Source of the DNA: Pyropia yezoensis
Taxonomy: Eukaryota; Rhodophyta; Bangiophyceae; Bangiales; Bangiaceae
DNA length: 64,000 nucleotides
Assembly (NCBI GenBank): GCA_009829735.1
Contig: CM020618.1
Location: 35,006,894-35,070,893, forward strand
Reading direction: 5' to 3'
Shown: piece by piece, positions 428-46,614 of the stretch
Layout: every line of letters starts with the position of its first letter
Position numbering within the stretch: the first letter of the stretch is position 1
Made by a program: the position numbers and the translations under genes
Notes under the pieces: generated by a model
Database searches by the model: none
Seen by the model: the letters and a program-made list of their open reading frames with translations, nothing else
Told to the model about the DNA's origin: nothing

Positions 428-1058
428 CTAGGCACACATGCTAGACTCTCCAACCCCGCGGCCCTCGCCCTCACGTGGGGGCGAGCGGCGCGACCCACGC
501 AGATAACGTTCCTCACCAGTCGGCGGGGCTGGCGGCTCCAAGTCGGACCCGCCGCGCCCCTCACGGTCGCGCAAGTGGCGACGACCGCGGCTACTCTTCT
601 GCTTGGTCTTGCGCGCAAGTTGGCGACGCAGACGCCGGACCGACTCCGTCTCTGACGGGGTAGAGGACTCCGAGACGGAATAAGACAACTGGTCTTCCGG
701 CACGGAGGGAGTCCGCCGCGAGTGACGGCGACGACGGCGAGGAGGCGAGTATGCCCGGCTCGCGCGACGTTTGCCACGCCCAAGTGGGGCTGGCTGGGGC
801 ACAATAGCCCCGATGCGAGCCAACTCGGCCGTCATAAACCCCGCCACCGACTCGCAACTCGCGGTCGCCACCGCAGTACGAACGCGCTCCTCAAGTTGAG
901 GGGTCTCGGAAGCTTGAAGGGATGCGGTCGACGCGGCCAACCAAGAAATGGTGCGCACTAACGTGGTGATCATCATCTCTGAGGTCAGAGACGTGGCCGG
1001 TAACACCAACTTGGGATAAACCGGCAGGAGAGTGGCCCCCAAGTTGGGGGACACCGGG
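428..1058 (-). pseudogene. A1 antisense ORF (aORF), C-terminal fragment
   Basis: This is the C-terminal third of the family A aORF, on the strand opposite to pol and ending 111 bp from the pol stop. It contains the helical stretch around TSEMMITTLVRTISWLAAS and the arginine/serine-rich tail with repeated RRRRR and SPP runs. The 631 bp contain no stop or indel relative to the full copy at 15403-17346. It is cut off at 1058 by the A2 LTR. Function is unknown; the basic RS-like tail suggests nucleic-acid or nuclear-factor binding, which is inference. Confidence 0.85.
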
Positions 1059-2938: not shown

Positions 2939-3628
2939 TGTAGGGACCCTATGGGCCCTTTACGTGGGGGGACCTCGAAGAGATCGCGTCGTACCCCTGT
3001 GCCCACCTTCCTAGTGAGGAGGACGGGGCCGATTTTGCCCCTTGGGATTTTACGGGCTTCCGATTGGTCCCCTCCTATGGAGATGGGACCGGGTCGCCAT
3101 TGGTTCTGGAGCCCATGTTGGGATTTCCAGTGTATGGGAATTTCCCCTGACCGGAATTGGCCATTGGTCAATACTGCGGGATGGGATGCATTTGAGGTTT
3201 GGATTTTGATTGTGTATTTTGCGTGATTGTGAGATTGGGGAGATCTTGAGTGTTGGCACTGATGTCCGGCGGGGCTCCTCTTCCCCGTATCTTGGAGATT
3301 CCTGCCCCGCTGGCAGGGATGATCCGTGGGGGAGGGGGCCCTCCGGACATGTTGGAGGGTTTTGATTGGCTCGCACGTGGCCCGGGTTGGAGGGTTGCTG
3401 GGTGCGGGTGAGAGAGGGTAAGAGTGTGCGTGGGGGTGCGCGTTGCTTCCCCCTTCGAAAAAAACAGACTTGCGTGTGCTTGAACACTGTCGTCCTGGTC
3501 GCCGATCCCCGCGTGAACCAGCCAGGCGGTCGGCGGCTCGGTATCTCTCCTGTCTCCCCGCGTTCTTGGTGGGTTGTTTCTCTGTGTGTTCTGGGTGCTA
3601 CGCGCCTAAGGTACGTAAAACCACTACA
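2939..3628 (+). repeat. 5' LTR of B (690 bp)
   Basis: It starts TGTAGGGACC and ends CCACTACA, paired with 10949-11638. Five ATTGG pentamers (reverse CCAAT boxes) lie at 3063, 3099, 3156, 3163 and 3365, and the palindrome GGGAATTTCCC is at 3137-3147. A weak T-rich candidate core promoter (TGTATTTTG) sits near 3211. Promoter roles are inferred. Confidence 0.95.
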
Positions 3629-3630
3629 TT

Positions 3631-3648
3631 TGGTGGATCAGCGGGGGA
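3631..3648 (+). promoter_or_regulatory. Primer binding site of B (variant)
   Basis: TGGTGGATCAGCGGGGGA begins two bases after the LTR. It matches the A/C/D site in 16 of 18 positions, with changes at positions 9 and 14. Confidence 0.7.
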
Positions 3649-3744
3649 GGGGACTAGGTTCCTTCTGGCCAAAGGGGTCTACCCCTTCTTCGAACTCTTT
3701 CTGTGGTTGCGCTCTGTCTTCCCTAAGGGAACGCGGTTGTAGTG
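3649..3744 (+). other. 5' leader of B with two small hairpins
   Basis: Between primer site and gag ATG there are two perfect hairpins, AAGGGG-TCTA-CCCCTT (3672-3687) and TTCCC-TAA-GGGAA (3719-3731). Leaders of retroelements often carry packaging or dimerisation structures; that role here is inference. Confidence 0.4.
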
Positions 3745-5466
3745 ATGTCTGATAACGAGCAGAATCCCCCTCAGGGGGAGACGGGAGTCCTGGAGGGCGG
3801 TTCCTCCGTGACGAAGGAGAGTGCGATTGGAGGCGCTGCTCCTCCGCGCGCCCAAGGGGCTGGAGTTGATGACCTGGCCACCCGTAGGGTGACTACCCGG
3901 CTACCCCCGCTGGAAATTGGTTCGGAGGGCCCATCGGGCGAACCGTATTCCCAGCCGCGCGGGAAGCGCGAGGGAGGGCATTCAACCGGCTTCGGCAATT
4001 TTCCTGGGATTCTCCCCTTTGCGGGGGTGGATTCTGAGGGAGCGCCCACCCCTCCGGTTCCCCTCACGGGGGCATCGTCTCCTAAGGAGACACCTCGAGC
4101 GTTTGTGGCCCCTGGATCGGATACTCCTACGGAGGATTGGAAGAAAGCGATGGTGGAGGCTGTTAGCGGCCTGCTGACTCCACTCAACCAACAGTTGAGT
4201 TTTGTCGAGCAAAGTGTGAAGAAACGGGAGCGCCAGCGTGGCCGGCAGCCCAGTTCTTCATCTGAGTCGACTTCGGATTATTCCGGAGGGGAGGCTTCGC
4301 CTCCCGAGCGCCGTCGGCGCCCGCGACCTGTAGTCCGAGCGGTTTCCGCTCAGGCAGGACCGGGGCGAGTCCCCCTACGGGAGATTCCCCCCAAAATTAT
4401 TCCGGCAGACGATCGTTATGCGAGCCTGCTGGACTGTGAGACATATGCTCTCAAGAATAAGGACAACCGAGTATCGGGAGCCGAGGCCCAAGGCCTGGGT
4501 AAGAAGCGAAAGGACCTGGCCAGTATATTTGGTCGCGATTGTGAATGGGGGGGAGACCCTCCTCTGGGAGTCTTCGAATTTCTTAACCGCTTCGTAAAAG
4601 CGGCAAATGATAACGGCCTCTCAGAGGGGCGAGCTTTGCTTCTCCTCCCGGAATTTACTAAGGATCCCTTGAAGAGGGACCTTTATCGAATTCGCCCATC
4701 CGTCGATGACGGCCGGCGCACTGGGGAGGTGACCTCCTATTTGGAACTGGTGAATTGGCTTCTGCGCGCGTACGCAGATGAGCATCTCCTGAATGAACAG
4801 GAGGCCATTTTTAATGGTGCCTCCCAAGAGGAGGATGAGACAGAGACGGCGTTTCACCGCCGCCTCATGGAGCTCCACGCGAAGTGTGGATATATACAAA
4901 CCTCGGGCCAGGTCCGAGCCCGCTTTATGCAGGGCACCTGGTGGGAAATTCGGCACGAGGTACGAAACTACGTAGCTGACCACCCTCATGCTCCTATTGA
5001 GCTGGTGGTACAGTATGCCCAACGGGCAGGAGATTTTCGGCGGCGGGTTCAAGCCGCCGCCAAGGACTTAAAGGCAAAAGAAGACGCGGAGCGTATCGCT
5101 CGGCGCATGGCGCGTCGGGCTCTGGCGGCTGTTACGTCGTCACCCCAGGAGGTGGGGGAGGCCTCTGGCTCTCCCCGCAAGGATTATCGACCCTCTGGGG
5201 GGTCCAGATGGACGGACGGGAAGCGGGAACTCTTCCCCTGCCACGTCTGCAATAGTACCTCCCACTGGATGTCAAATTGTCCACACCTCCCGGAGGCGAC
5301 TCGAGCACAGATGGCCAAGGCGCGCGCGGAGCGCAAGGAGGCCCGAGACTCCGCCCGCACTGGCGGGGCGATTGCTGCGGCTACGCCCTCCCCAAAGGGG
5401 AAGGTAGATCGACCGAGTTCCCCCACGGGGAGTTCCTCTGATTCCTCATCTTCGGGAAACGCGTAA
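3745..5466 (+). CDS. gag: B gag polyprotein, intact (573 aa)
   Basis: Gag forms the virus-like particle and binds element RNA. I chose ATG 3745 (GTGATGTCT) rather than the GTG one codon upstream. The first 200 residues are Gly/Pro/Ser-rich. A basic segment rich in RRRPRP follows, then the conserved capsid-like block FEFLNRFVKAANDNGLSEG around 4570-4630. Near the C-terminus (5240-5285) is one zinc knuckle, CHVCNSTSHWMSNC (CX2CX4HX4C). The end is a Ser-rich tail and the motif SGNA. The last codons contain the frameshift heptamer GGGAAAC. No stop interrupts the gene, unlike the pol of the same copy. Confidence 0.92.
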   Translation: MSDNEQNPPQGETGVLEGGSSVTKESAIGGAAPPRAQGAGVDDLATRRVTTRLPPLEIGSEGPSGEPYSQPRGKREGGHSTGFGNFPGILPFAGVDSEGAPTPPVPLTGASSPKETPRAFVAPGSDTPTEDWKKAMVEAVSGLLTPLNQQLSFVEQSVKKRERQRGRQPSSSSESTSDYSGGEASPPERRRRPRPVVRAVSAQAGPGRVPLREIPPKIIPADDRYASLLDCETYALKNKDNRVSGAEAQGLGKKRKDLASIFGRDCEWGGDPPLGVFEFLNRFVKAANDNGLSEGRALLLLPEFTKDPLKRDLYRIRPSVDDGRRTGEVTSYLELVNWLLRAYADEHLLNEQEAIFNGASQEEDETETAFHRRLMELHAKCGYIQTSGQVRARFMQGTWWEIRHEVRNYVADHPHAPIELVVQYAQRAGDFRRRVQAAAKDLKAKEDAERIARRMARRALAAVTSSPQEVGEASGSPRKDYRPSGGSRWTDGKRELFPCHVCNSTSHWMSNCPHLPEATRAQMAKARAERKEARDSARTGGAIAAATPSPKGKVDRPSSPTGSSSDSSSSGNA

Positions 5467-5480
5467 GGGGCGGTCCCCCT
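5454..5480 (+). promoter_or_regulatory. Putative -1 frameshift signal at the B gag/pol junction
   Basis: GGGAAAC (5454-5460) lies in the gag frame as G GGA AAC, two codons before the TAA at 5464-5466. After a 5-nt spacer comes the hairpin AGGGG-CGGTC-CCCCT (5466-5480). The -1 frame is open from the heptamer into pol. GGGAAAC is a known slippery sequence in some retroviruses; function here is inferred. Confidence 0.7.
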
Positions 5481-8400
5481 AGAGCTTCTCCCACAACGTC
5501 CCCAGATACGGGGGGGCCTAAGAGGATTTTGCGCCGCCCCCCAACGAACAAGCCTGCATTATTGGCACTCCCTAAGGGGGTGAAACGGGAAAATGTTATT
5601 TGCGCGATTATGCCTTCATCCAGCTATCAGCTGGCTGTACATTTGTTTGCTACTGAAGGGTTAGAGCATGCTTTGCACGCTGTCCTGGATACCGGCAGCG
5701 GGCCCTCCCTGATTCGAAGCTCCTTGCTCCCGAAGGGAATGGGGCTCCAGCCCCTAGGGGAGCTGGAGAATATATTGTACTTTGACCTGAATGGGGGGTG
5801 GCTCCCCATTCGAGGAACTGTACGCTTGGGCGTACAAGTGGGAGACCAAGTCTCCTACGTCTGCTTTGGAGTGATCGATAATATGGCGGTACCCGTCATA
5901 TTAGGAAATTCATTTGGTGACACGGAGGTGAAAACCATCTCCTGTGAGGACCAGACGGTGACCCTCAAGACAGGGATGGTTGTCCCAATTTTCCGGGATA
6001 TGGAGGATGTGGAAACGGGTCCCATTAAGTGGAACCCTGTGTGCGCTTGTCCACAGGTCAAGACCGCAAAACTCACCTTGTGTCACAAGTTGAGGCTGAA
6101 GCCTGGGGTTATCTCGCATGTGAAGGTGCGGGGGAATTTCCAAGGCCACGGGATTATTTCCGGGCAGCCCCGTATCGCCTCCAAGTACGGTGTTCACGTG
6201 GCGAACGGCCCCGCGGAGCTAAACCGGGACGCCCCGTACACCGTGCAAATGATGAATCCTACGCCAACGATGGTCCGCCTTCCCGTTGGGACGGTGGTTG
6301 CGTCAATATCATTTTATCAGGGACCAATACTGAGCGTCTCTCAAGAAGAGATGCAGAAGCTGAGCGAAGGTCCTGTGGTGAAGGAGGAGGGCGCCCATTC
6401 TGAGGTTGACCTAGGAGAGGTCCCTGAAGCCCTACGTGGCCAGCCCTTGGAGCTGGTGGAGAAATACAAATCCCTATGGGATGGTACTCTTGGACTCATC
6501 AAGAATACCGTGCACCGTATACGCTTAAAACCCGGGGCAACCCCGGTAAGGCAACATCCTTGCAAGGCGGGGCACAAGCATCGCCACTTGGAAGGGGAAC
6601 AAGTGGAACGGATGCGAAAACTCGACGTTATTGAACCCGCCGAGGGCGAGTCGGCTAGTCCCGTGGTAATCGTCCCGAAGTCGGACGGCACGCCCCGGTT
6701 TTGTATTGACTACCGGCGGCTCAACCTCGTCACGGTGAAGGATGCATATCCCATCCCAAGGATGGATGAATGTTTGGACTCCCTAGGGGAGGCCAGGGTG
6801 TTTAGCACCCTAGATTGTAACGCTGGATATTGGCAAATTCCTATTGCACCAGAGGATAAGCACCTGACGGCATTTACGTGTCATAAGGGCATATGGCAGT
6901 GTACACGGTTGCCCTTTGGGCTCTGCAACGCTCCAGCGACGTTCCAGAGAGCTATGGATATTATCCTGGCTGGTGTGAAGTGGCAGACCTGCCTCGTATA
7001 TTTAGACGATGTTATCGTCTTTTCTCGTTCTGACGAGGAGCACCTGCACCACTTGAAACACGTTTTGAGCCTCCTCAAGGAGAACGGCGTGTCGCTGAAG
7101 GCGTCCAAGTGCCACCTCTTTCAGAGGGAGGTCGAATATTAGGGACATGTCATCCGCCCAGGGCGGGTGGCCGTGAATGAGAGAAATACCAAAGCCCTCA
7201 AGGGGTTGCATTATCCGCGTACACGCACGCAGCTGAAGAGCTTCTTGGGCATGTGCGGGGTATACCGAAGGTTTGTCCCGAATTTTGCCCGTATCGCCCG
7301 ACCGCTGAACGTGCTGACTAGTACGCACCTAGCCAAGGAACTACCTCCTCCGACGGAGGAGACTCAAGCGGCGTTCGAGGAGCTTCGCGACTGCCTTCTG
7401 AAGCCTCCTATTTTGGCCATCCCTCGGGAGGGAGCCCATTATATTTTGGAGGTGGACGCCAGCTATGAGCAGCTGGGCTGTGCCTTGTTGCAACAACAGG
7501 AGGACGGGGAGTATCTCCCCGTCGGGTATTTTAGTCGGGGTCTATCCCCGGCCGAGCGGAACTACTGTGCCACAGAAATTGAGGCACTCGGAGTGGTATG
7601 GTCAGTGACCTACCTGCGTTCCTTCTTGGAAGGATCCGAATTTCTGGTGCGCTGTGACCATTCTGCCCTCACTTCTGTGATGACAAGCAATAGCCCTAAT
7701 CGACGCCTTACGGGCTGGAGGCTCCGCTTGGCGGAATTCTCCTACCAAATTAAGCACAAACCGGGGTAGGACCACAAAGTGGCTGATGCCCTGTCTCGCC
7801 TTCCTACGGATGGCTTGGATAGGACACCTTTGGATGATCAGATACCCATATTGGCGGTGACCCGGTCAGCAAAGGCCCTCACAGACCGAAGCCCGAAGGG
7901 CCTCGGGAAGATTACGCTTCGAGAGCTCATCGAGGCCCAGGCCTCGGATGAGTTTTGCAAGCAACGCGGGATGGAGGGGCCTCTCATCCCTCCAAAGGAG
8001 GCCCGTTGGCAGCGAAACGCCTTCTTCTTTGAAGACGACGATGGTGTATTATGTCGCCACTCCCTACTCGGGGGGAATAACCAATGGGTCATCCCAGAAT
8101 CGCTGCGGAAGCGTGTTCTGGAAATGTATCATGATGCGCCTACGGCGGGTCATCCGGGTTCCCGGAAGATGTACAGGACGATGCGCCAGTATTTTTATTG
8201 GCCCGCCCTAGTGGCGGATGCATACGGGTATGTTTATAACTGCCCAGGATGCACCAAGAACCGCATATCGGATAGGAGGCATAAGTCTCCTATGAAGCTA
8301 TTCCCCGCCCATGAGCCATTCCAATCGGTGGCCATGGATTTGCTGGGTCCTCTTCCAAGGACGGAGAATGGGCACACCATGCTCCTGGTGATGTGCGACC

Positions 8401-9473
8401 GGTTCACCAAACTGGTGAGGGCGGTCCCACTATCGGACACGACTGCCCTTGGGGTAGCCTCTGCATTTATCGATTATTGGGTGGCTGCCTATGGCATCCC
8501 GGATTCTACTCTGACGGACAACGGACCTCAGTTTGCGGCCGTCTATTTCCAAGGAGTCATGGGGCTCCTAGGGATTTCCACAAACTACACGACTCCGTAT
8601 CACCCACAGACCAACGGTCAAGTGGAACGGTATAACAAGACAATCATGCGGCAGCTACGGACGTATTCGTCCGAGCACCCACGGGAATGGGATCGCTATG
8701 TGTCCCTCCTGACGACTGCATATAATATGCAGGTACATTCGAGCACTGGGGTAGCCCCAATGACTTTTGTGAGCCCTCGGCGCTTGCAAGCGTCGAATAT
8801 AGAGCGCTTACCTGAGGTACGCTCTGTGGACACGGAAGAGCCTGACGCCGATACGGCGGCGGTTCAATATGTGAAGGAAATGCGCCACCTAATCCCCCGG
8901 ATTAGGAAAAATTTGGATAAGGCCCAAGAGGCCTACAAACGCGTTTATGACGCTGGCATACAACAAGAAGAAGAGACTATGTCTCAAGGAGATTGGGTTT
9001 ATGTGAAATCCTATGCTAAGGGGCGGACAAAAATGTCGTCAAGGACGAGGGGACCGTATATGGTGCTACGCACGGACGGGCAACGATTTCTTATTGAAAC
9101 ACCGACGGGAGAACAGACCCAGAGCAAAGACAATATCATACGTGCTCCCCCGCCAAAGGCAGGGGATCCAGTATGGATGCGGGCACGGGAAGCCCGGGAC
9201 GCGTACAACGAATGCCCCGAGGAATCCCCTGGGAAGGACGTGTTCGAACAGATTGTCGGCCACCAGCGGGTGGAGGACGAAGACGGGAAGCCCGACTTGG
9301 ACTTCCGGGTGCGGTGGTTTGGCCACGGCCCCGAAGGGGATACTTGGCATCCCAAGAAGGGTGTGCCACGGGCGGCTCTGCTGAAGTATGCCCGAAGGCA
9401 CAAGCTCCCCATCAAGGGACGGGACCAAGGGTCCCGACTATTCCCCCAAGGGGGAACGGAAGAAGAAGAATAG
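5457..9473 (+). pseudogene. pol: B pol polyprotein (PR-RT-RH-IN-chromodomain) with two TAG stops
   Basis: The frame runs in -1 relative to gag and has no good ATG near its start. Domains in order: aspartic protease with VLDTGSGPS (about 5683-5710); reverse transcriptase with CIDYRRLN, FSTLDCNAGYW and YLDD (7000-7011); RNase H with LEVDASY and ATEIEALGVVW; integrase with the H..H..CX2C zinc finger (H near 8131 and 8152, YNCPGC at 8236), MDLLGPLP, LTDNGPQF and NGQVERYN carrying the DDE residues; and a chromodomain (FRVRWFGH..GDTWHP). Stops are TAG at 7140-7142 (EVEY*GHV, after the RT palm) and TAG at 7767-7769 (KPG*DHKVAD, end of RNase H). The frame is otherwise unbroken, so B is inactive in cis but only mildly decayed. 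Confidence 0.93.
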
Positions 9474-10934
9474 CGACCAACTCCCAAAGGGAGTGGCTAC
9501 AGAATTAGATGAGTAAATCGATTGTTCAGGGGCCCGCCCGTCAGAAGAAGTTGTGTATAGCACAGTTGGCAAGCTTTATGCCTAATATTGGCGAGGTCGC
9601 GGGTTCAAATGTTGAAGATGCGTCCTCTTCGGTGGCATCCACACCCGTATTTGTGTGGAGGGGGCTGACGTCGACGGGGAACAGTGGCGAAAGGCCGCCC
9701 TCTTCCCGCACGTCGTCTTCGGAAACATGTTTTGCTCGACCCCCATGGGGTCCGCTGCACGGGGGTACCCCGAGCATGCTCTGCAGATGACGGATACACT
9801 GGCAACTCGGTGCCAGCTTGGCTCCAGGGTGACCCTAAGGGCCACCGGCACGGACGAGAGTACGCGATACTTGGGCGCAGAGGTGAAGCGTGACCATCGG
9901 TCACCCTTGTGGAGGTCCCTTCGTCACCTTGGGATATCCTTGTGGGAGCCTTCGGCCCCCATCCTTGCCTTGGCTTGAGCGACGCCCCTGCCTTGAGCCT
10001 CATAATGGAACTGGTCACCACCCTTGGGATGCAAGTCACCCTTAGGGTGACGGGTAGTCGCGCCGAAGCGGCAGGGAAGAAGGAAGGGGGCCAGGCCCCC
10101 CGAGTCCGCCAACGGTGGTACAGGTACCTCGGCCGGCGAAGCCGGACCGGCATCACCCCGGCCGCTCCCGGCGTCGTCCATAAGGACGTCGCCCGGAGCG
10201 GCGGGTGGCATCCGCGTGGCCGAAGGGCCACGGGGGGAAGAAGGAGCCGAAAGGGAAACGGGTCCGCGGCCGTCACCCATGGTGGCGTTGTGGTCCGATG
10301 GCCCCAACGGGGTAGCCATGACTGGCCACACTCCGCAGGCGACGGAGGGGGGAAGTGCGTGGATGCCACCCCCACCCTTAGGGTGAGGAAGAGGGGGACG
10401 CGCGCGGACCGGTGGCAGCGAGGTGGAGCCGAGGGGGGGAGGAGACGGTGGCCGTCCTTGCGGCGAGCACCCGTTGGCACCCCTCCCGCTCCGATCCACC
10501 CCTCACGGGTGGACGGGCGGCCCTCTTCTACCCCTCGGCCCCTTGACACAGGGCTGAGGGGGGTGTACAGAAGGCCCCCAAACCCCTCGCTCCCGGCTAT
10601 GCCAGGAGAGATAGTTTCCTCACGTCCCCACCCTGTGCGGGCAGGGCCGTGGGAGGCGACGGGTCCTATCCTTGCTGCGTCCCCCACTTCTCGGGTGGTG
10701 GTTTGAAGGGGGTGTCTCCACGTATCCCGCCTGTCACGCGACGATAGTGGCCACGATTGTCTCCCCAAGGGAGGAAACCATTGGGCCGATCTGACCCAGT
10801 GTCATCCACACCCCCATGGGGAGGGTACACTCGGCGGTGGGGACTGCATGCTGACAAGTGGCATTGCCTCCGCCGCCCGTTGGGCACCCGGGAGATTTTT
10901 GCCCCGGTGTCTGGGTCGCGGGTCGCAACCCCCT
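9474..10934 (+). other. B non-coding tail, hairpin-dense, no recognisable ORF
   Basis: This 1.46-kb stretch occupies the position of the aORF in the other families. Long open frames exist on both strands but none carries the aORF core, and they look like by-products of GC richness. Many short perfect hairpins are visible, for example GTCACCC-TTA-GGGTGAC (10035-10051), CGTGGCC-GAAG-GGCCACG (10215-10232), GGGGGCC-A-GGCCCCC (10086-10100) and an 11-bp stem with one G.T pair (10531-10561). A tRNA-like relic lies at its start. Confidence 0.6.
9550..9622 (+). other. tRNA-like relic (resembles tRNA-Ile AAU) with box A and box B
   Basis: TAGCACAGTTGG (9558-9569) fits the RNA polymerase III box A consensus, and GGGTTCAAATG (9601-9611) resembles box B, spaced as in a tRNA gene. 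The middle, CCTAATATTGGCGAGGTCGC, resembles the anticodon and variable region of eukaryotic tRNA-Ile(AAU). The T stem and acceptor do not pair well, so this is a decayed tRNA or the head of a tRNA-derived SINE, not a functional tRNA. Confidence 0.4.
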
Positions 10935-10948
10935 GGAGGTGTGGGAAG
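10935..10948 (+). promoter_or_regulatory. Polypurine tract of B
   Basis: GGAGGTGTGGGAAG abuts the 3' LTR, the expected place for the plus-strand primer. Confidence 0.7.
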
Positions 10949-11638
10949 TGTAGGGACCCTATGGGCCCTCCACGTGGGGGGACCTCGAAGAGATCGCGTC
11001 GTACCCCTGTGCCCACCTTCCTAGTGAGGAGGACGGGGCCGATTTGGCCCCTTGGGATTTTACGGGCTTCCGATTGGTCCCCTCCTATGGAGATGGGACC
11101 GGGTCGCCATTGGTTCTGGAGCCCATGTTGGGATTTCCAGTGTATGGGAATTTCCCCTGACCGGAATTGGCCATTGGTCAATACTCCGGGATGGGATGCA
11201 TTTGGGGTTTGGATTTTGATTGTGTATTTTGCGTGATTGTGAGATTGGGGAGATCTTGAGTGTTGGCACTGATGTCCGGCGGGGCTCCTCTTCCCCGTAT
11301 CTTGGAGATTCCTGCCCCGCTGGCAGGGATGATCCGTGGGGGAGGGGGCATTCCGGACATGTTGGAGGGTTTTGATTGGCTCGCACGTGGCCCGGGTTGG
11401 AGGGTTGCTGGGTGTGGGTGAGAGAGGGTAAGAGTGTGCGTGGGGGTGCGCGTTGCTTCCCCCTTCGAAAAAAACAGACTTGCGTGTGCTTGAACACTGT
11501 CGTCCTGGTCGCGGATCCCCGCGTGAACCAGCCAGGCGGTCGGCGGTTCGGTATCTCTCCTGTCTCCCCGCGTTCTTGGTGGGTTGTTTCTCTGTGTGTT
11601 CTGGGTGCTACGCGCCTAAGGTACGTAAAACCACTACA
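10949..11638 (+). repeat. 3' LTR of B (690 bp)
   Basis: It has the same length as the 5' LTR with about ten substitutions by eye and no indel. It ends CCACTACA and is followed by the TSD ATCAG. Confidence 0.95.
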
Positions 11639-14595: not shown

Positions 14596-15064
14596 TGTGG
14601 CAAAAACCACAAGCACACACGGCACCCAAGTTGGGGCGGTGTGCTAGGGCTGCCTCCCGTGTCGGGGGAACCGGAAGAAGTGCAAGTCGCACACACTCTG
14701 TCCCTGTTGTGGGGCAAACCCCCCACGGACAAACAAGAGGATGGTGTGTGGTCCAACAGTTTCTTGGTCGGGACGGGGACGCGGGGCCAAGCCCCGCTGT
14801 CCCTCCCCTTATCCCTCCAGGGTCCCCTCAGAATCTCGCCACTCAGAATCTCCCACCCCAGCACCTGCCCACCGGGCCACACGAAAATTCAAGACGATAA
14901 ATGCAGAAAACCCTCAAATCCAAGTTGGATTTACTACTAAGCTAACTATCCCAAACTTAGGAAATATGGACCCAAATGCAGGGGGAGGAACGGATCAGGC
15001 TAGTGGCCTGCCGCCCCTTGCATGGCACGTGTTGCCCCCCTACCTGGGGGTCAATACTGCCACA
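14596..15064 (-). repeat. 3' LTR of A3 (469 bp)
   Basis: In + orientation it starts TGTGGCA and ends TGCCACA, paired with 23504-23972. Both the sense and antisense strands could carry promoters, since the aORF is transcribed away from this LTR, but I see only weak A/T-rich candidates (GATAAATG, GAAATATGG). Confidence 0.95.
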
Positions 15065-15402: not shown

Positions 15403-17346
15403 ATGGCGACTCCGGGAGTGGAGACGGACTCTCTTGACGAGCGCATGGAGGACACCTCCTACGGTGCAGCACCCGCCGGGACTTCCGGCGGGGGCTCCGC
15501 GATCGCTCCGGGGGACGGGACTCCCGCGTCACCCGGCTTTGGGTTGACGGCGGGGTCTCCCCCGGTGGCGGGACAAGTTGTCCCGCGTGAGACCTTGGGG
15601 CGGTGGTTTTACCCCGCTTGGCCTCTCTATGAGGAGGGGCTGACTGTTCTTCGCTGTGGCCGACTTGGCGCAGCGATGGGCCGGGGATGGGACCGCCTAC
15701 GGGAGAAATATCCCCGTAGAGTCGGGTTCCCTGCCGGCTTCAGGACTGACCAGTTTGCCTTCCTGGACGATGAGGAGGTTGAGGACGTTCAGCGTACCAA
15801 GGCCATGGTGGACTGCGGGGGAACTATCCCGGGTCCCGGCGACTTGCCGACCTTCACGTGGGACGCTGTGGCAACTCGCCCACCGTACCTCCACGAGGCC
15901 GATCCGCACACTCATCACTTTGATGTGCGGATGGAGAAAGACTTCCGGCGAGGTCCCTACTTGGTGACCTCGGCTCAACTTGAGTTTCCTCAACAGTCTG
16001 CTGCCAGTAAGGAGCAGTACTATCCGAAGAAGCCCGAGTGGTGGCCTCAAGTTGAGGTCCCCTACGGATTCCCGGCGTTGTTGCCACGGTTGCTTGACCA
16101 CTTCGGCTCCGTCATGTTGACGGCTGCCCCTGATCACCTGGTGTGGGCCATGTTGGCCACCCAGTGGCTCCTCGAGGTCATGTCGACCTGGGTGTCTTGT
16201 GTTCAGCGGCGGGGGATGCTCTGGCATCTCCCCCTCCGGCTCCTCCAAGGTTTGGAACAGCTCACCCCTCAGCTACTTGCTGAGGGGTGCTCATCAGGAC
16301 AACTCAGTCTACTTGAGGAGATGCTCCGGCTCCATAAGCTTATCGAGTGGGAGAGCATTGAGCACAAGTTGCGCCGCCCCACTCGTGGGCCCAAGGACGA
16401 TGGCGCACTTCGCCAGTTCGTGTGGGTCGCTCGTGAACTTCACGACGGCCGTGTGGTTCTACGAGAGGGGTTGGGCATCGGGGACAACCCATATGCCCCG
16501 GGGGTGGATCGCCACACTGCGCCACCCCCGGACAAGCCCATAGTTATGGCTGTGCCCTCATATGATGACCATATGACTCAACCCACTGCGGGGGCCCCAA
16601 GTCGGGGTCGCAGTTACACCCGGGTACCGCCACCTCGGCGGGCCCCTCCGCTTCCTCCTGTTCCTTTCCAACCTCACGGGAACATCCCGATCAGCGTGGC
16701 CGTGGAGTCTTCCACCCCGGTGTCCCCCAACTTGGGGGCCACCCTCCTGACGGTATACCCCAAGTTGTTGTTGCCGCCCACGCCTCTAACCTCAGAGATG
16801 ATGATCACCACGTTGGTGCGCACCATTTCCTGGTTGGCCGCGTCGACCGCAACCCTACAGAGTTCCGAGACTCCTCAACTTGAGGAGCGCGTTCGTACTG
16901 CGGTGGCGACCGCGAGTTGCGAGTCGGTGGCGGAGTTTATGACAGCCGAGTTGGCTCGCATTGGGGCTATTGTGCCCCAGCCAGCCCCACTTGAGCGTGG
17001 CAAACGTCGCGCGAGCCGGGCATACTCGCCTCCTCGCCGTCGTCGCCGACACTCGCGGCGCTCTCCCTCCGTATCGGAAGACGAGTTGTCTTACTCCATT
17101 TCGGAGTCCTCTACCCCGTCGGAGACGGAGTCTGTCCAGCGTCTGCGTCGCAAACTTGCGCGCAAGACCAGGCAGAAGAGTGGCCACGGTCGGCGCCACT
17201 TGCGCGACCGTGAGGGGCGCGACGGTTCCGACTTGGAGCCGCCGCGCCCTCCAACGAGTGGAGACCGTTATCGGCGTGGGTCTCGCCGCTCGCCTCCACG
17301 TGAGGGCGAGGGCCGTGGAGTGGGAGAGTCTAGCATGCGTGCCTAG
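15403..17346 (+). CDS. A3 antisense ORF (aORF), intact, 647 aa, unknown function
   Basis: A long ORF opposite to gag/pol, tail-to-tail with pol. I chose ATG 15403 because it follows the conserved palindrome; the frame stays open upstream. Residues 1-70 are Gly/Pro/Ser-rich. The core (about 75-380) is folded-looking and aromatic-rich, with LGRWFYPAWPLYEEGL, YYPK at 206-209, VEVPYGF, HFGSV and RRGMLWHLP at 269-277. A Pro-rich linker follows, then a helical block (TSEMMITTLV..), then an Arg/Ser-rich tail. YYPK...VE.P.GF and the R.L.[FH]LP block recur in the C and D aORFs. No catalytic motif is evident. Antisense extra ORFs are known in plant Tat-lineage elements with unknown roles; a regulatory or nucleic-acid-binding role is only a guess. 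Confidence 0.88.
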   Translation: MATPGVETDSLDERMEDTSYGAAPAGTSGGGSAIAPGDGTPASPGFGLTAGSPPVAGQVVPRETLGRWFYPAWPLYEEGLTVLRCGRLGAAMGRGWDRLREKYPRRVGFPAGFRTDQFAFLDDEEVEDVQRTKAMVDCGGTIPGPGDLPTFTWDAVATRPPYLHEADPHTHHFDVRMEKDFRRGPYLVTSAQLEFPQQSAASKEQYYPKKPEWWPQVEVPYGFPALLPRLLDHFGSVMLTAAPDHLVWAMLATQWLLEVMSTWVSCVQRRGMLWHLPLRLLQGLEQLTPQLLAEGCSSGQLSLLEEMLRLHKLIEWESIEHKLRRPTRGPKDDGALRQFVWVARELHDGRVVLREGLGIGDNPYAPGVDRHTAPPPDKPIVMAVPSYDDHMTQPTAGAPSRGRSYTRVPPPRRAPPLPPVPFQPHGNIPISVAVESSTPVSPNLGATLLTVYPKLLLPPTPLTSEMMITTLVRTISWLAASTATLQSSETPQLEERVRTAVATASCESVAEFMTAELARIGAIVPQPAPLERGKRRASRAYSPPRRRRRHSRRSPSVSEDELSYSISESSTPSETESVQRLRRKLARKTRQKSGHGRRHLRDREGRDGSDLEPPRPPTSGDRYRRGSRRSPPREGEGRGVGESSMRA

Positions 17347-17457: not shown

Positions 17458-18801
17458 TCACGTTGAGGGAGGGCTGTTAGGGTCTATCTCATTCCGGGCA
17501 CAGTATGCCCGGACCTTCTGAGCGGGAAGGTCCTCCACATATTTCCACGTATCATCCTTCGCCTTATAGCCAAACCAACGCACCCTCAACATGAGGCGGT
17601 CAGTGTCTTCATCCCATCCGTGGTCGATGAACTTATCGAACACGTACTCCTGCGGGCCCTGTTTGGCCGCGGGCAGTGAGGGGAGGCGCCACGCTTCCAA
17701 CGCACGCGCCCAAGCTGGGTCGCCTGCAGGCGGTGGTGCAACTTTGACCACGTCCTGTCCGTTCACCGTGCGGACCCCATCGTCACTTTCGATGGTGAAG
17801 CGCCGCCCATCAGTACGAAGGACCTGGTACGGCCCCTTTGTCTGGAATACCAACTTACCCCCAGTTGGGGTGTGCGAGTGTACCAGCACCCAGTCACCCT
17901 GCTCGGGGACATGCTTAGCATTGCGCACCGTTGTGTCAAAGGTACGCTTGTAGCGCTTTTGTGCTTTGTCTATCTCAGCCCTGACTTTAGGGATGAGGTT
18001 TTCAAGCCTAGCGGCGAACTCCGCCTTACTCTCAGTAGGAGTAGGCGTACTGCCACCATCCTCCCTAGTTGGGAGCGACCGCCGCACGGCAATAGACCGC
18101 ACGCGACGGGGGGTCACAAAAGCGAGGGGTACTTCCCCGGTAGATGAGTGAACCTGCGAATTGTAGGCAGTGGTAAGAATAGAAATGTATTGGTCCCACG
18201 TTTTCACATGCTCACTCACATAGTGGCGCAGCCGCCGAACAATAGTTTTGTTGAAGCGCTCCGCGTGCGCGTTAGTTTGTTGGTGGTAGGGAGCGGCATA
18301 GTATGCCTTGACCCCCAACATATCCAGCACTCCCTGAAACAGTACGGACGCAAATTGCGGTCCATTGTCGGATAGTGTACTATCTGGGATGCCATACGCG
18401 GCAACCCAGTGATCTAGGAAGGCTGACACGACCGACATGGCCGTGATCTCTGCCAGTGGGATCGCTCGCGTAAGTTTCGTGAAGCGGTCACAGATGACCA
18501 GGAGGTACTGGTTGCCCTCCTCGGTCACTGGCAGTGGCCCAAGGATGTCCATCGCCAACGCGGCGAAGCGCTCCTTGGCCGGGAACAATAGCATAGCCGT
18601 AGTAGGCCGCCGTTCCATCAGACGATTCTGTGCACAACTTGTGCAGGCAGCCACCCAACTGTAGATGTCCACCACCATGGACGGCCAGTAGTACCTGGTC
18701 CTCAGGGTCTGGTACAGTTTACTAGACCCCAGGTGTCCACCCGTGGGAGCGTTGTGCTCCCTCTCAAGGATACTGTCCTTGAGGGATGCGGGGACGACAA
18801 G
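17458..18801 (-). CDS. pol: A3 pol downstream part: integrase and chromodomain
   Basis: The frame continues directly after an in-frame TAA at 18802-18804. It begins LVVPASLKDS and holds the complete integrase: HHCC finger (EREH, GGH, CTSC), MDILGPLP, LSDNGPQF and the glutamate in the block that is NAHAERFNK here (NGQVERFNK in A4). It ends with the chromodomain LRVRWFGYKAKDDTW. There is no other stop in 447 codons. In this copy the integrase frame is intact, while A2 and A4 carry an extra T near the MDILG motif. Expression would need readthrough of the TAA, internal initiation (for example at the ATG at 18678), or complementation. Confidence 0.88.
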   Translation of the reverse strand, partial: LVVPASLKDSILEREHNAPTGGHLGSSKLYQTLRTRYYWPSMVVDIYSWVAACTSCAQNRLMERRPTTAMLLFPAKERFAALAMDILGPLPVTEEGNQYLLVICDRFTKLTRAIPLAEITAMSVVSAFLDHWVAAYGIPDSTLSDNGPQFASVLFQGVLDMLGVKAYYAAPYHQQTNAHAERFNKTIVRRLRHYVSEHVKTWDQYISILTTAYNSQVHSSTGEVPLAFVTPRRVRSIAVRRSLPTREDGGSTPTPTESKAEFAARLENLIPKVRAEIDKAQKRYKRTFDTTVRNAKHVPEQGDWVLVHSHTPTGGKLVFQTKGPYQVLRTDGRRFTIESDDGVRTVNGQDVVKVAPPPAGDPAWARALEAWRLPSLPAAKQGPQEYVFDKFIDHGWDEDTDRLMLRVRWFGYKAKDDTWKYVEDLPAQKVRAYCARNEIDPNSPPST

Positions 18802-21441
18802 TTATTCGGTCCCCTGAATTACCTTCCTCCTCAAGAGGAGGCCATCGTCTCCGATGAAGAACCGCGTCTCCGCCAGCGTATCTAGCGTATCCCTCTGCGA
18901 CTTGCAGAAGGAGTCCTCGGCCTGGGCCTTCACCACCTCGTCCAGGGACAAGGGCAAGTACTTCTTGTTCCCTGGCGCCTCGGGGCTCAACGCCTGACCC
19001 GAGCGCGTGACTACCCCCACGATGGGGATGTCCTCATCGACTGGGTTAGTGTCCAGCCCCTCGGTAGGTACCCGAGAGAGGCCGTCGGCAAGGGCATGTT
19101 GCCTGCCAGGCCGGTATTCAATGTCAAAGTTGAAGGGTGCCAGTCGCACCCTCCACCGGTTGAGACGAGTGTTCGTACAGTCCGTCTTAAAGATGAACTG
19201 CAACGCGCGGTGGTCACAGCGGATGAGGAACTTCTCACCCTCCAGGTAGTGACGAAGTGACGTCACCGCCCACACCACTGCGAGTCCTTCCAACTCGGTG
19301 ACTCCGTAGTTCTTCTCGGCCGAGTTCAGCCCCTTATTAAAGTATCCCACCGGCAAGTACTCCTTGTCCGGCTGCTGCTGAAGCAACACACAACCAAGTT
19401 GGTCGTAGCTGGCATCCACATCCAGGATGTAGTGGCCTCCCAACCTGGGAATAGCCAAGATGGGCGGCTTTAGCAGAAGGTCCCGAAGAGTCTCAAAGGA
19501 TTCCTGCTCCACCCGACTTGGGGGAGGCAGGTTCTTCGGTAACGTTGAGCTCACTAGCTCATTCAACGGCTTCGCCACCCTGGCGAAGCCCTTGGTGAAA
19601 CGTCGGTACACGTTACACATCCCGAGGAAGCTCCTCATCTGGGTCTGGGTCCGGGGGTACTGAGCCTTACAAATGGCCCTCAGGTTCTTCTCGTTAACAC
19701 TGAGACGCCCCGGATGGACAACATGTCCCAAGTACTCCACCTCTTGAGTGAAGAGGTGGCACTTACTCGCCTTAAGTGACACACCGGCGTCAGCAAGTAG
19801 CTTGAACACCTGGCCAAGATGGCCAATGTGTTCCTCCGGACTTCGGGAGAACACAATGATATCGTCTAGGTACACAAGACAGATCTGCCACCGTACTCCG
19901 GCCAGAATCCTGTCCATAGCGCGCTGGAAAGTTGCCGGCGCGTTACACAGACCAAACGGTAGACGCTTGCACTGGTAGGTACCACAGTGACAGGTAAAGG
20001 TAGTTTTATGCCTGTCCTCCGGGGCAATGGGAGTTTGCCAGTACCCCGCGTTACAGTCCAGGGTAGAGAACACGTTTGCCTCCCCCAGAGAGTCCAGACA
20101 GTCATCCATCCTAGGTAGGGGATAACTGTCCTTCACCGTGCTTTCGTTGAGCTTACGGTAGTCGATACAGAACCGGGGGGTCCCATCAACTTTGAGGACG
20201 ATAACCACCGGACTCGCCCACTCGGCGTTGCTGGCCTCGATCACATCGAGGGCCTCCATGCGAGCAACTTGCTCCTTAACGAGGGCCCTTGAACGGGGTC
20301 CTCCCCCATACGGTTGTTGGCGTATAGGGGGTGCACCGGGCTTCAATTCGATCCGGTGTTGGGTAGCTCTCATGAGTCCCAATTGACCATCCCACAACTT
20401 GTGGTATTGGTCCAAGAGGCGTTCAACTTGAACCCTCAACCTGGGGGGGACACCCTCCATGTTCACATGGGGTCGAGGAGAGGCGGCCGACTTGGCTTGA
20501 TGCTTCTCCCTTCCGGACTTCGGGTCGCTACTTGCGCCCGCGTTTAGGGTGACCGCTACTACCGGTCCCTCGTGTTGGTCGATATAGCCGAACTTGGCTC
20601 CCGACTTGAAGTACTTGGGCGTCGGGCTCAGGTTCATCACCTGGATCCTCCACGGGACTCCGGCTTTGGGGTCCATCGTGCCAAGGGCAACATGCACTTG
20701 GTGCTTGCGAGCAAGACGGGGGTGAGGGTGCACCAACCCGTTCTCCGAAAAATCAGTTACAACGTCAACGTGCGCCACCGAGTTGGGGGGCAACGTGACT
20801 TTACGGGCTAAACGCAGGGTAGCAGTAAACCCTTCCCTCACAGAACAAACAGGCTTCGACTGTGAGACTGTCACAGGAGCCACAGACTTTCCCTTACCAA
20901 GGATGGGGATAGTCTCCCCATTCATCAACTTGACACAGTACTCGGGGCCACAAATCAAAGGCACTTGTGTAACAACATAAGGGGTACCCAGAAGCCGGGG
21001 TACCGATATATTCTCAACTACGCCATAGGTCACGTCGACCTCATGGGTCCCCAACCTAGTTGGTAGGGTCACGGCACCAACGATGGGAAGTACCCCCCCA
21101 TTGATGTCAATCATATGGTCAGCTCTGGACCTCCAGCGTTGGAGCTTCACCTCCTTTGGTAATAGCGACTTGCGTATCAAGGAGGCTCCTGACCCGGTAT
21201 CAAGTACGATACGGGTACAGCATGCACGGCCGGGGGCAAGTTGCACCCGTCCAGCCACCTGGAAGTTCTCACCCGTCAGCACCGCGATGACCCGACGTGG
21301 GTTTACGTTCTTGGGGAGTCCTACCCGAGGTGGGCGGACTCCCTTAGGTCGCCGCAGTATCCGGCACGGTTGGTTCGTCCTCCTGGCCCACTTGGCCGAG
21401 GCTGCCGTTGTGAGCTTCGGACGACCAGCCCCAACGGTCAT
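18802..21441 (-). CDS. pol: A3 pol upstream part: protease, RT, RNase H (879 codons)
   Basis: ATG 21441 overlaps the gag stop as ATGA and is in the -1 frame. Protease has DTG at residues 81-83. A linker follows with RPHVNMEGVPPRLR. Reverse transcriptase has CIDYRKLNE, FSTLDCNAGYW and YLDD at 524-527. RNase H has LDVDASYDQLG, TELEGLAVVWA and IRCDHRAL. The ORF ends VIQGTE then TAA, exactly at the RNase H/integrase boundary. The same TAA is present in A2 and A4, so it is not a private lesion. No other defect is visible in this part. Confidence 0.93.
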   Translation of the reverse strand: MTVGAGRPKLTTAASAKWARRTNQPCRILRRPKGVRPPRVGLPKNVNPRRVIAVLTGENFQVAGRVQLAPGRACCTRIVLDTGSGASLIRKSLLPKEVKLQRWRSRADHMIDINGGVLPIVGAVTLPTRLGTHEVDVTYGVVENISVPRLLGTPYVVTQVPLICGPEYCVKLMNGETIPILGKGKSVAPVTVSQSKPVCSVREGFTATLRLARKVTLPPNSVAHVDVVTDFSENGLVHPHPRLARKHQVHVALGTMDPKAGVPWRIQVMNLSPTPKYFKSGAKFGYIDQHEGPVVAVTLNAGASSDPKSGREKHQAKSAASPRPHVNMEGVPPRLRVQVERLLDQYHKLWDGQLGLMRATQHRIELKPGAPPIRQQPYGGGPRSRALVKEQVARMEALDVIEASNAEWASPVVIVLKVDGTPRFCIDYRKLNESTVKDSYPLPRMDDCLDSLGEANVFSTLDCNAGYWQTPIAPEDRHKTTFTCHCGTYQCKRLPFGLCNAPATFQRAMDRILAGVRWQICLVYLDDIIVFSRSPEEHIGHLGQVFKLLADAGVSLKASKCHLFTQEVEYLGHVVHPGRLSVNEKNLRAICKAQYPRTQTQMRSFLGMCNVYRRFTKGFARVAKPLNELVSSTLPKNLPPPSRVEQESFETLRDLLLKPPILAIPRLGGHYILDVDASYDQLGCVLLQQQPDKEYLPVGYFNKGLNSAEKNYGVTELEGLAVVWAVTSLRHYLEGEKFLIRCDHRALQFIFKTDCTNTRLNRWRVRLAPFNFDIEYRPGRQHALADGLSRVPTEGLDTNPVDEDIPIVGVVTRSGQALSPEAPGNKKYLPLSLDEVVKAQAEDSFCKSQRDTLDTLAETRFFIGDDGLLLRRKVIQGTE

Positions 21442-21450
21442 TCGTTTCCC
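21405..21450 (-). promoter_or_regulatory. Putative -1 frameshift signal of A3
   Basis: The heptamer GGGAAAC is at 21450-21444 on the - strand, followed after 6 nt by the hairpin at 21437-21405. Compared with A2, the inner stem changes GAGCT to GGGCT opposite AGCTC, replacing A-U by G.U, so pairing is kept despite substitution. Confidence 0.72.
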
Positions 21451-23384
21451 GCCGACTTGGCGTCCGAATCTGAGGGCGGGGAGGAAGACGACGAGTCCGA
21501 GGACGACGTGTCCGCCTCCTCCGCCGAGGGTGTGGCGACCGCGACGACCGGTCGAGACCCACCCTCGCGGCGTGAACGTACTTCGTTCGTAGCCGACTTC
21601 TTACTCGCATTCCTAACAAGTTGTTGGATGCGTTTACTCAACTTGGGGCAATCATATGCCCAGTGTCCATCGGAGTTGCAGTTCCAACACCGATGGTCAG
21701 TTCCGGGAGGGGTCTTCCCGACTGGGGAAGACGAAGGGATACCCTGGGAAGTTCCCACGGCAGCTACCACCCTCTTCTTGCGGATTCGGCGTGCCTCTCT
21801 CAACTCTCTGGCCTGGCGCGCCTCCTCCCGTTCCTTGGCCAACTCGGCCTGACGCTCCTGGCGTTGTTCCTCCCGTAACTTGCGGTAGGCCTCGCCTCTG
21901 CGAAAGGCGAACCTAGCCAACTCGGCCAGGGTCGCCCGGGCGGTGTTATGCTCCCGGATCTCCATCCGGACTGACCAATGGAGTCCCTCCACAAACCGAC
22001 TCTTCACCACAGCTTGTGGATGAAGAAACCCACAAAGATTGTTGAGCTTACAGACTCGCTCCGCAAAGGACAACTCGTCCTCCGCCTCTTCCTGATGGGC
22101 TTGCGTAAACTCCTCGACTTGAGAAGCCAACGCTGCCTCATCAACCATGGCTCTCAACAACCAGTTGACGAGCTCCAAATAGGACGTCACCTCACCAGCG
22201 CCTCCACTTGAGGAGCTGGGCATGACGGACATAAGTTCTGTCCGCAGGTCTCCCGTCGTAAACTCCTGTAGCATGTAGAAAGCCATGCCTTCACTTATGG
22301 CATTGTCGTCACAGGCTTTTGTGAAACGACGTAGGAACTCAAAGACACGGAGGGGGGGAGTTCCATCCCACTCCGCTCTGTGCCCAAAAGAATGAACTGC
22401 ATTCTTCTTGGCACGGCCCATAGCTCGGGCCTGGTCAGGACCATACGCCACCGACTTGTTGTGGAGGGCGTAGGTCCCACAGTCAAAGATCCGCTGGTAG
22501 ACCGGGTTGGCTACCTGGATCTTGGGCGGCACCTCACGTTGAGGGAGCAGCCGCTGTGGCCCTGGGGTAAGTTCACCCTCAGTGCCTGTAGTCTGGTACG
22601 GCGAGCTTGGTGTAGCCGCCGGCGATTCCGGGGGGAACTCCCCCATCAAGGGCGTACGCCCCACCGAGTATGGTGTGGCTCCCCCGTTGGGAGTCACAGG
22701 TGTCGCCCCCTGTTCGGGGCGACCAGAGATAGGCGTAAGGGGGGATTCCCCCTGCGCCTGCGGGCTCGAAAGCCCCGATCCGGTCTGGACATTAAGGCCA
22801 TCTGGCAAACTCGCCACAATCTGATTCAGAATTGTATTCGTCATCGTGACCACCAGGTCCGGCAAAGTCTGCCGCAACACATTGGTCGCCTCCCGACGGA
22901 CAGTTTCCGCGAGGAGTGGATTGACGACTCCAGTTGAGTCTCGGTCCGCCTCCGGGAGTCAACCTGAGGGGTAACCACGTTCCTCAGGGGTCTCAACCGG
23001 GGGCTTGGGCGCGAGCCCATCGCCGACCAACGGAGGTCCACCGTCCTCCGAAAGCCTAGTTGGCGACGGCTCCAAGCCAAAGTTGGCTCCAACCCGAGTG
23101 GAACCCGCGGGGACAGTCCTCACCCCTTGGGACGTTCCCGTTGAGTATACCACACGGTGGCCAGACTTCGGCCCACCCACATCAGAAGTGTCACCCGAGT
23201 GAACTCCCGACTGAGTCGGGGTGGCCTGTTGCGCGCCCGTACTTCCAGTCCTGCTGGCTTGAGGGACCTTTAGTCCCTCTGCGACCCCAGGTAAACCCAC
23301 CTGTGTCTCACCAGTATTCAAAGGCACTGAAGTACGTGCGTCACCCGTGTACTCCCCGGACGACGGGGGGGCCGAACTAGCCAT
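21438..23384 (-). pseudogene. gag: A3 gag (648 codons) with one nonsense
   Basis: ATG 23384 (AATATGGCTAG) is equivalent to A2 ATG 1647. The N-terminus is disordered and Thr/Pro/Gly-rich. The capsid-like block FEFLRRFTKACDDNAISEG follows, then a basic helical region, the intact zinc knuckle CWNCNSDGHWAYDC and the SAGNE tail. A TGA at 22961-22959 replaces a GGA (Gly) seen in A2, truncating the product after about 141 codons. The remaining 1.5 kb is open, so the lesion looks recent. Confidence 0.92.
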
Positions 23385-23483
23385 ATTGGCTGACGATCCG
23401 TATGACACGGTCCAAGACCACCGTTCCTCCGAGACAGAGGGCCCCCTACACCCGGGTGCACCCGGAGGTAAAATTTACCTCTG

Positions 23484-23501: not shown

Positions 23502-23503
23502 AA

Positions 23504-23972
23504 TGTGGCAAAAACCACAAGCACACACGGCACCCAAGTTGGGGCGGGGTGCTAGGGCTGCCTCCCGTGTCGGGGGAACCGGAAGAAGTGCAAGTCGCAC
23601 ACACTCTGTCCCTGTTGTGGGGCAAACCCCCCCCGGACAAACAAGAGGATGGTGTGTGGTCCAACAGTTTCTTGGTCGGGACGGGGACGCAGGGCCAAGC
23701 CCCGCTGTCCCTCCCCTTATCCCCCCAGGGTCCACTCAGAATCTCGCCACTCAGAATCTCCCACCCCAGCACCTGCCCACCGGGCCACACGAAAATTCAA
23801 GACGATAAATGCAGAAAACCCTCAAACCCAAGTTGGATTTACTACTAAGCTAACTATCCCAAACTTAGGAAATATGGACCCAAATGCAGGGGGAGGAACG
23901 GATCAGGCTAGTGGCCTGCCGCCCCTTGCATGGCACGTGTTGCCCCCCTACCTGGGGGTCAATACTGCCACA
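23504..23972 (-). repeat. 5' LTR of A3 (469 bp)
   Basis: Bounded by TGTGGCA and TGCCACA, followed by the TSD ACTGG at 23973-23977. It differs from 14596-15064 at six positions by eye. Confidence 0.95.
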
Positions 23973-25892: not shown

Positions 25893-25896
25893 TATT

Positions 25897-46145: not shown

Positions 46146-46614
46146 TGTGGCTAAAATCACATGCACACACGGCACCCAAGTTGGGGCGGTGTGCTAGGGC
46201 TGCCTCCCGTATCGGGGGAACCGGAAGAAGTGCAAGTCGCACACACTCTGTCCCTTTTGTGGGGCAAACCCCCCACGGACAAACAAGAGGATGGTGTGTG
46301 GTCCAACAGTTTCTTGGTCGGGACGGGGACGCAGGGCCAAGCCCCGCTGTCCCTCCCCTTATCCCCCCAGGGTCCACTCAGAATCTCGCCACTCAGAATC
46401 TCCCACCCCAGCACCTGCCCACCGGGCCACACGAAAATTCAAGACGATAAATGCAGAAAACCCTCAAATCCAAGTTGGATTTACTACTAAGCTAACTATC
46501 CCAAACTTAGGAAATATGGACCCAAATGCAGGGGGAGGAACGGATCAGGCTAGTGGCCTGCCGCCCCTTGCATGGCACGTGTTGCCCCCCTACCTGGGGG
46601 TCAATACTGCCACA
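46146..46614 (-). repeat. 3' LTR of A4 (469 bp)
   Basis: It begins TGTGGCTAAA (other copies TGTGGCAAAA) and ends TGCCACA. The 5' LTR lies beyond 64000. Confidence 0.94.

What the first reader, a model, noticed from the sequence alone, without database searches (positions are those of the whole stretch)
15403..17346. A family of convergent antisense ORFs shared by three chromovirus families
A, C and D each carry a 1.9-2.3 kb ORF opposite to gag/pol, between pol and the 3' LTR. All have a low-complexity head, an aromatic-rich core, a Pro-rich linker, a helical C-terminal block and a basic segment. The cores align by eye: YYPK...VEVPYGF...HFGSV...RRGMLWHLP (A), YYPK...VEIPVGF...NRLWFLP (C, 42021-44138), YFGSV...RRQGRLFHLP (D, 47772-50093). 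Antisense extra ORFs are known from Tat-lineage plant elements, but I know of no described family of this kind in chromoviruses. This is the best candidate for an undescribed system here.
Basis: partly seen in the sequence, partly recalled or inferred. Interest (0 to 1): 0.88.

Follow-up and report, generated by a model that had tools for sequence, protein, structure and literature searches.

The report
Conserved antisense gene in seaweed retrotransposons
Several families of virus-like jumping genes in a red seaweed, most likely nori, carry the same uncharacterised protein gene written backwards next to their replication genes; evolution has preserved the protein, yet some copies have lost it and still spread.

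Summary
The observation largely holds, and the family is wider than stated. The window is a nest of Gypsy elements in a 107-Mb genome whose three scaffold lengths match Pyropia yezoensis. A, C and D carry homologous antisense ORFs between pol and 3' LTR: A-C 2e-6, A-D 1.5e-5 after masking, 0 of 60 shuffles reaching either. D's window copy has an in-frame stop; intact copies exist. The ORFs are coding: dN/dS A 0.03-0.35, C 0.12-0.36, D core 0.20. Families B2, E and K carry it too, convergent with pol; near 83 B/E-type pol matches, 34 have it downstream, 34 of 34 on the opposite strand. Derivatives of B and E, window B included, lost the protein body at shared breakpoints and multiplied: the protein is trans-acting or dispensable in cis. 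Nothing above cut-off in Pfam, PHROGs, NCBIfam or PDB; the plant TRP28 model finds nothing in this genome. Function unproven; best guess a trans-acting regulator. Structure prediction never ran; no RNA data.

The parts
15403..17346 (+). aORF of element A3 (647 aa), convergent with pol
   Evidence: frame test and dN/dS; 63 of 68 scored genomic copies without stop
17458..22958 (-). gag-pol of A3 (gag 21438-22958; protease motif by eye, RT and RNase H 18802-21600; integrase and chromodomain 17458-18801)
   Evidence: the chromodomain is below the Pfam cut-off
14596..15064 (-). 3' LTR of A3 (98.7% identical to 23504-23972); the aORF starts 338 bp inside it; target-site duplication ACTGG, read by eye
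23504..23972 (-). 5' LTR of A3
57541..59484 (+). aORF of element A4, open; D is inserted between its LTR and its aORF
45354..46193 (-). C-terminal part of the aORF of A1, cut by the A4 insertion near 46145
431..1057 (-). C-terminal part of the aORF of a further A element at the window edge
42021..44138 (-). aORF of C2 (705 aa), convergent with pol 37760-41875 +
   Evidence: 63 of 63 scored genomic copies without stop
32096..34210 (-). aORF of C1, in four frame-shifted pieces
47772..50093 (+). aORF of D, interrupted by an in-frame stop at 49050-49052; pol of D on - ends at 50572
46821..47195 (-). LTR of D (97.6% identical to 57041-57414)
9493..10084 (.). module in element B, without a long frame shared among copies, standing where B2 copies have the aORF body; beyond it homology resumes inside the aORF, near codon 79
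2937..11638 (+). element B (LTRs 98.6% identical; target-site duplication ATCAG, read by eye): an insertion without an aORF body

Best explanation
The ORFs are one ancestral accessory gene of a group of chromodomain-bearing Gypsy retrotransposons in a red alga, carried on the strand opposite to gag-pol, between pol and the 3' LTR, and converging on pol. Shown: the protein is selected at protein level and homologous across at least six families (A, B2, C, D, E, K) in one position and orientation; derivatives of two families lost it and still multiplied. Inferred: it is translated from an antisense RNA that starts in or near the 3' LTR, and the protein acts in trans as a regulator of the element (expression or escape from silencing) rather than as a part required in cis, so that deleted elements can use protein from intact relatives. 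The arrangement is a low-complexity head (fast-evolving in D), a conserved aromatic core of about 300 residues, a Pro-rich linker and a variable C-terminal part.
For: Coding: among 9 A copies 83 of 130 changes are synonymous in the aORF frame against 41 expected, 0 stops against 4.1 expected; N/S ratio 0.26, versus 0.30 for an integrase piece in 8 of these copies. Pairwise dN/dS: A 0.03-0.35 in 21 pairs, D1-D2 core 0.20 in 2 pairs, B2-L070 0.19 with core 0.14 in 1 pair, C 0.12-0.36 in 6 pairs. Homology. Fixed architecture: of all 83 pol matches in the B-query table 34 have an aORF match over 400 nt within 1.5 kb downstream, 34 of 34 on the opposite strand, and none was found elsewhere within 1.5 kb; K likewise. 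Loss with spread: 5 of 5 aORF-less B loci resume at the same nucleotide; 8 of 9 E loci lack the body, 6 of those 8 resuming at the same nucleotide. Window B, a deleted copy, has LTRs 98.6% identical and a target-site duplication. No strongly hydrophobic 19-residue stretch in A, B2, C, D, E, K (maxima 1.23-1.54).
Against: No transcript, protein or localisation data. Only A has a clear basic, NLS-like tail. No DNA-binding or regulatory domain was recognised. Loss in B and E derivatives fits dispensability as well as supply in trans. D's second half is weaker on selection: N/S ratio 0.56 (pol 0.39), and 0.47 on 12 shared changes, z 1.6; its C-terminal part gives dN/dS 0.51-0.63 on few changes. 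The agreement between aORF and integrase similarity is only suggestive (Spearman 0.56, 87 of 720 permutations reach it). J, with dN/dS 0.76, shows little constraint.
Confidence: 0.5

Rival explanations
1. Same gene, but the product is a structural or particle-associated helper (of Gag, RNA packaging or nuclear entry of the pre-integration complex).
For: A conserved core with a Pro-rich linker and low-complexity head; conservation across large families.
Against: Copies without it are numerous and one has near-identical LTRs; no zinc knuckle or Gag match.
Confidence: 0.2
2. It is an anti-silencing factor: the protein protects related elements from host epigenetic silencing in trans, which would let deleted derivatives spread as cheaters.
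For: Loss followed by amplification in two families; in D a fast-evolving head beside a slow core.
Against: No direct evidence; no known anti-silencing family was compared directly, and no Pfam family matched.
Confidence: 0.2
3. Envelope-like gene in antisense orientation.
For: The place between pol and the 3' LTR is where env sits in retroviruses (recalled).
Against: Wrong strand; no membrane-like segment in six of seven proteins tested; J reaches 2.15.
Confidence: 0.03
4. The frames are open only as a by-product of GC-rich composition, or because a sense-strand gene lies opposite.
For: GC is about 60-61% there, and unrelated long open frames occur in GC-rich tails such as B's.
Against: Random sequence reaches at most 424-458 codons and the other five frames of A3, A4 and C2 hold 10-27 stops each; selection test.
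Confidence: 0.01
5. A captured host gene, acquired once and exchanged between elements.
For: Origin unknown; the J repeat has the core without a pol close by at the one locus tested. Co-inheritance with integrase is not statistically established.
Against: The two closest pairs agree between aORF and integrase (A-K, B-E); core identities of 16-37% imply long residence.
Confidence: 0.1

Closest known systems
Antisense ORFs of plant Retand (Tat) Gypsy elements with the TRP28 domain (Transposase_28, PF04195)
   Same: Antisense ORF between pol and 3' LTR, shared by most element clusters, function unknown, regulatory role proposed (PMC11963269, abstract and passages read).
   Different: PF04195 gave no candidate in this genome at E<=10 (the 14 control genomes gave only a sub-threshold hit, so the search had no positive control) and none in the aORFs. 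Per that paper Retand is a non-chromovirus lineage found in Eudicotyledons and Liliopsida only; these elements have a chromodomain-like end and lie in a red alga.
HBZ/APH of HTLV and ASP of HIV-1
   Same: Protein gene antisense to gag-pol; HTLV-1 hbz is expressed from the 3' LTR, which is bidirectional (PMC10186651, passages read).
   Different: HBZ is a bZIP protein; no bZIP or other domain was found here, and no transcript is known. The sequences were not compared directly.
Chromodomain Gypsy elements of algae
   Same: Integrase followed by a chromodomain-like end.
   Different: PMC12477816 (passages read) describes Ectocarpus chromodomain Gypsy lineages unrelated to chromoviruses; its passages on 'antisense' concern small RNAs, not ORFs.

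Membership tests
Tat/Retand TRP28 antisense ORF | antisense ORF between pol and 3' LTR | tested here: met
Tat/Retand TRP28 antisense ORF | TRP28 domain PF04195 | tested here: not met
   (sequence profiles only); genome search, without a positive control
Tat/Retand TRP28 antisense ORF | Retand reverse-transcriptase lineage | not tested
   no RT tree was built
chromovirus | chromodomain at the C-terminus of integrase | tested here: inconclusive
   PF00385 in A, B, C, D at E 9e-4, 8e-4, 6e-5, 0.019, all below the curated cut-off
chromovirus | RT phylogeny inside the chromovirus branch | not tested
   no named reference set used
LTR retrotransposon (Gypsy) | paired LTRs and target-site duplication | tested here: met
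   LTR pairs in A3, B, D and C1/C2; duplications read by eye for A3 and B
LTR retrotransposon (Gypsy) | RT, RNase H and integrase | tested here: met
   over cut-off: RT in A, B, C, D; RNase H in A and C; integrase in A, B, C, D. The protease Pfam matched only D and below its cut-off
HBZ-type antisense regulatory gene | antisense transcript from the 3' LTR | not testable with these tools
   no RNA data held
HBZ-type antisense regulatory gene | bZIP domain | tested here: not met
env-like ORF | sense orientation and transmembrane segment | tested here: not met
   (simple hydropathy only)

The most novel reading that the evidence does not exclude
Red-algal chromodomain retrotransposons share an ancient antisense gene whose trans-acting product is exploited by derivatives that deleted it: a public-good and cheater system inside one genome, independent in origin from the antisense genes of plant Tat elements and deltaretroviruses.
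Probability: 0.35. Interest if true: 0.8.

Novelty: new variant of a known kind. Interest (0 to 1): 0.62.

Why it matters
Antisense genes next to the 3' LTR are known from plant Retand elements and some retroviruses. A further protein family in the same place, with no detectable relation to these, in a red alga, suggests that the position itself is functional. The intact and deleted relatives in one genome allow a direct test of what the gene does.

Tried and rejected
Rejected: composition artefact for A and C; TRP28 membership; env; D as an intact ORF in the window; a basic tail as a family trait. Led nowhere: three protein database searches, which returned only near-identical copies (P0006, 95%; P0011, 98%; in 19 and 47 only the 8000 and 7999 candidates sharing most words were scored); one IMG/VR scan, 71 pattern matches and no relative; PDB profile search, best E 0.29. 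Weak library hits taken as chance: DUF6214 E 0.043 in D's second half, MFS_MOT1 E 0.15 and phrog_11575 E 0.24 in 1 of 9 core sequences each. NCBIfam: 0 families for 5 proteins, K and J not scanned. Literature: nine searches (the lists of 49, 96 and 141 were cut to 8 of 20, 12 of 14 and 8 of 9) showed in titles and abstract openings no report of such ORFs in chromodomain elements or red algae; I read passages of five papers (PMC11963269, PMC8752119, PMC12477816, PMC7423979, PMC10186651) and none in full; the library lacks most subscription journals. The origin of the replacement modules was not found among the sequences compared. Structure prediction never started.

Full report
What the window is. 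The window lies at C1:35006894-35070893 of a 107.5-Mb genome in 11 contigs. Its three large contigs are 43.59, 34.33 and 29.39 Mb, equal to the scaffolds of 43.6, 34.3 and 29.4 Mb reported for Pyropia yezoensis (PMC7423979, passages read); the same passage says LTR retrotransposons predominate among its repeats. The species name rests on that match. The window is a nest of Gypsy elements. Element A1 (+) was hit by B (2937-11638), A3 (-, 14596-23972), C1 and C2 (+, 25314-44894) and A4 (-, from 46146), and A4 was hit by D (-, 46821 to about 57410) (the nesting is my reading of the self-matches).

The observation. A3 and A4 have an open antisense ORF of 647 codons and C2 one of 705. D's is interrupted by one in-frame stop in this copy; other genomic copies are open, 789 residues. 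They lie between the pol end and the 3' LTR and run towards pol; the gaps to pol are 111 nt (A3), 145 nt (C2) and 478 nt (D). Random sequence of the same dinucleotide make-up reaches at most 424-458 codons in 1000 trials for each of A3, A4 and C2.

Homology. With low-complexity masking, A-C has E 2.1e-6 and A-D 1.5e-5, with 0 of 60 window-shuffles reaching either (0 of 150). C-D alone is weak: E 0.028, reached by 3 of 60 shuffles. B2-D (1 of 60) and D-E (14 of 60) are likewise not significant; B2-C has E 0.007 (0 of 60). The C-terminal blocks of A, C and D do not match significantly. A K-family protein links them in unmasked searches: A 1.6e-46, E 3.6e-27, B2 1.7e-19, C 3.3e-9, D 7.9e-6.

A wider family. 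Fetching the region downstream of B-like and E-like pol copies showed the ORF there too: E (539 aa, A-E 3.5e-18) and B2 (596 aa from its MATPS start, A-B2 1.1e-15, B2-E 2.5e-39). F (L050) has decayed pieces with stops; L058 has a partial match and L057 none. K has pol on the other strand, convergent, with integrase 62% identical to A. Searches with E and B2 proteins list further divergent copies, at 29-64% identity. Cross-matching every row of the pol table with every row of both aORF tables: of 53 pol rows at 80% identity or more to B, 25 have an aORF match over 400 nt within 1.5 kb downstream, of 30 rows below 80%, 9 have one; all 34 are on the opposite strand, and none was found elsewhere within 1.5 kb. 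Some rows are fragments of one copy, and all three searches score only the best candidates, so these are not copy numbers.

Selection. In 9 A copies without indels, 83 of 130 changes are synonymous in the aORF frame against 41 expected, with 0 stops against 4.1; the ratio is 0.26, against 0.30 in an integrase piece (8 copies). Changes shared by two or more copies give 0.10 (pol 0.11). For D's second half in 20 copies the ratio is 0.56 (pol 0.39, 19 copies) and 0.47 on 12 shared changes, the weakest case. Pairwise dN/dS: A 0.03-0.35 (21 pairs); D1 against D2 0.40-0.43 overall, core 0.20, head 0.40-0.49, linker 0.28-0.40, C-terminus 0.51-0.63 on few changes (2 pairs); B2 against L070 0.19, core 0.14 (1 pair); C 0.12-0.36 (6 pairs); J 0.76 (1 pair). 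Copies without stops: A 63 of 68, C 63 of 63, D second half 112 of 117; these are the best-scoring candidates, so they favour intact copies.

Loss and spread. Window B has no aORF match. Compared with B2 (L055), five aORF-less B loci (window B, L051, L053, L054, L056) all resume homology at the same nucleotide inside the aORF, keeping about its first 79 codons, and share a module of 586-623 bp in place of the body; a sixth, L052, has the aORF but interrupted. In the E family 8 of 9 fetched loci lack the body (only L047 has it); six resume at exactly the same nucleotide (codon 48), one 10 nt further, one differs. They share a module of about 520 bp; L048 keeps only 228 bp of it and L062 has extra sequence. 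The nine E loci were picked, not at random. Since the ORF is present in A, C, D and K too, and remnants of its start remain, these are losses, one in each family, followed by amplification. Window B has LTRs 98.6% identical and a 5-bp target-site duplication. The protein is therefore either supplied in trans or not needed in cis for transposition.

Inheritance. The two closest pairs agree between aORF core and integrase (A-K, B-E), but the overall rank correlation, 0.56, is reached by 87 of 720 permutations, so co-inheritance is suggested, not proven.

The J repeat. Two loci with an aORF-like 342-aa frame belong to a repeat of at least 5.8 kb (93% identical, no self-repeat or match to the window by blastn). 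At one of them the 2.5 kb downstream held no match to the integrase or pol queries; the other flanks were not tested for pol. It may be a non-autonomous derivative or a captured copy.

Mechanism. Shown: protein-level selection, homology, a fixed convergent place, loss with spread. Inferred: antisense transcription from or near the 3' LTR, and a trans-acting regulatory role. The comparison with TRP28 and HBZ is one of arrangement, not of sequence. Structure prediction was requested 25 times and never ran, so the fold is open.

Verdict. A real, selected protein family in a known kind of position, with no match above cut-off in the libraries searched.

Noticed in passing
window 1-64000: The window is a multi-level nest of Gypsy elements: B, A3, C1/C2 and A4 inside A1, and D inside A4.
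   Followed up: partly
window 34915-35414: A run of N sits between C1 and C2, so the arrangement of the two C elements is not resolved.
   Followed up: no
window 32096-34210: C1's aORF has three frame changes although C1 and C2 are 99.7% identical; this may be assembly error rather than decay.
   Followed up: no
L068, L069 and flanks L071, L073-L075: A repeat of at least 5.8 kb (93% identity between two loci) carries an aORF-like frame; no pol was found downstream at the one locus tested.
   Followed up: partly
LTR-inner junctions of A, B, C, D: The elements share a similar stretch next to the 5' LTR, read by eye as a primer-binding site; the tRNA was not identified.
   Followed up: no
window 9493-10084; L049, L059-L061, L063, L064: Two modules without similarity to each other by blastn (586-623 bp and about 520 bp) replace the aORF body in B and E derivatives; their origin is unknown.
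   Followed up: partly
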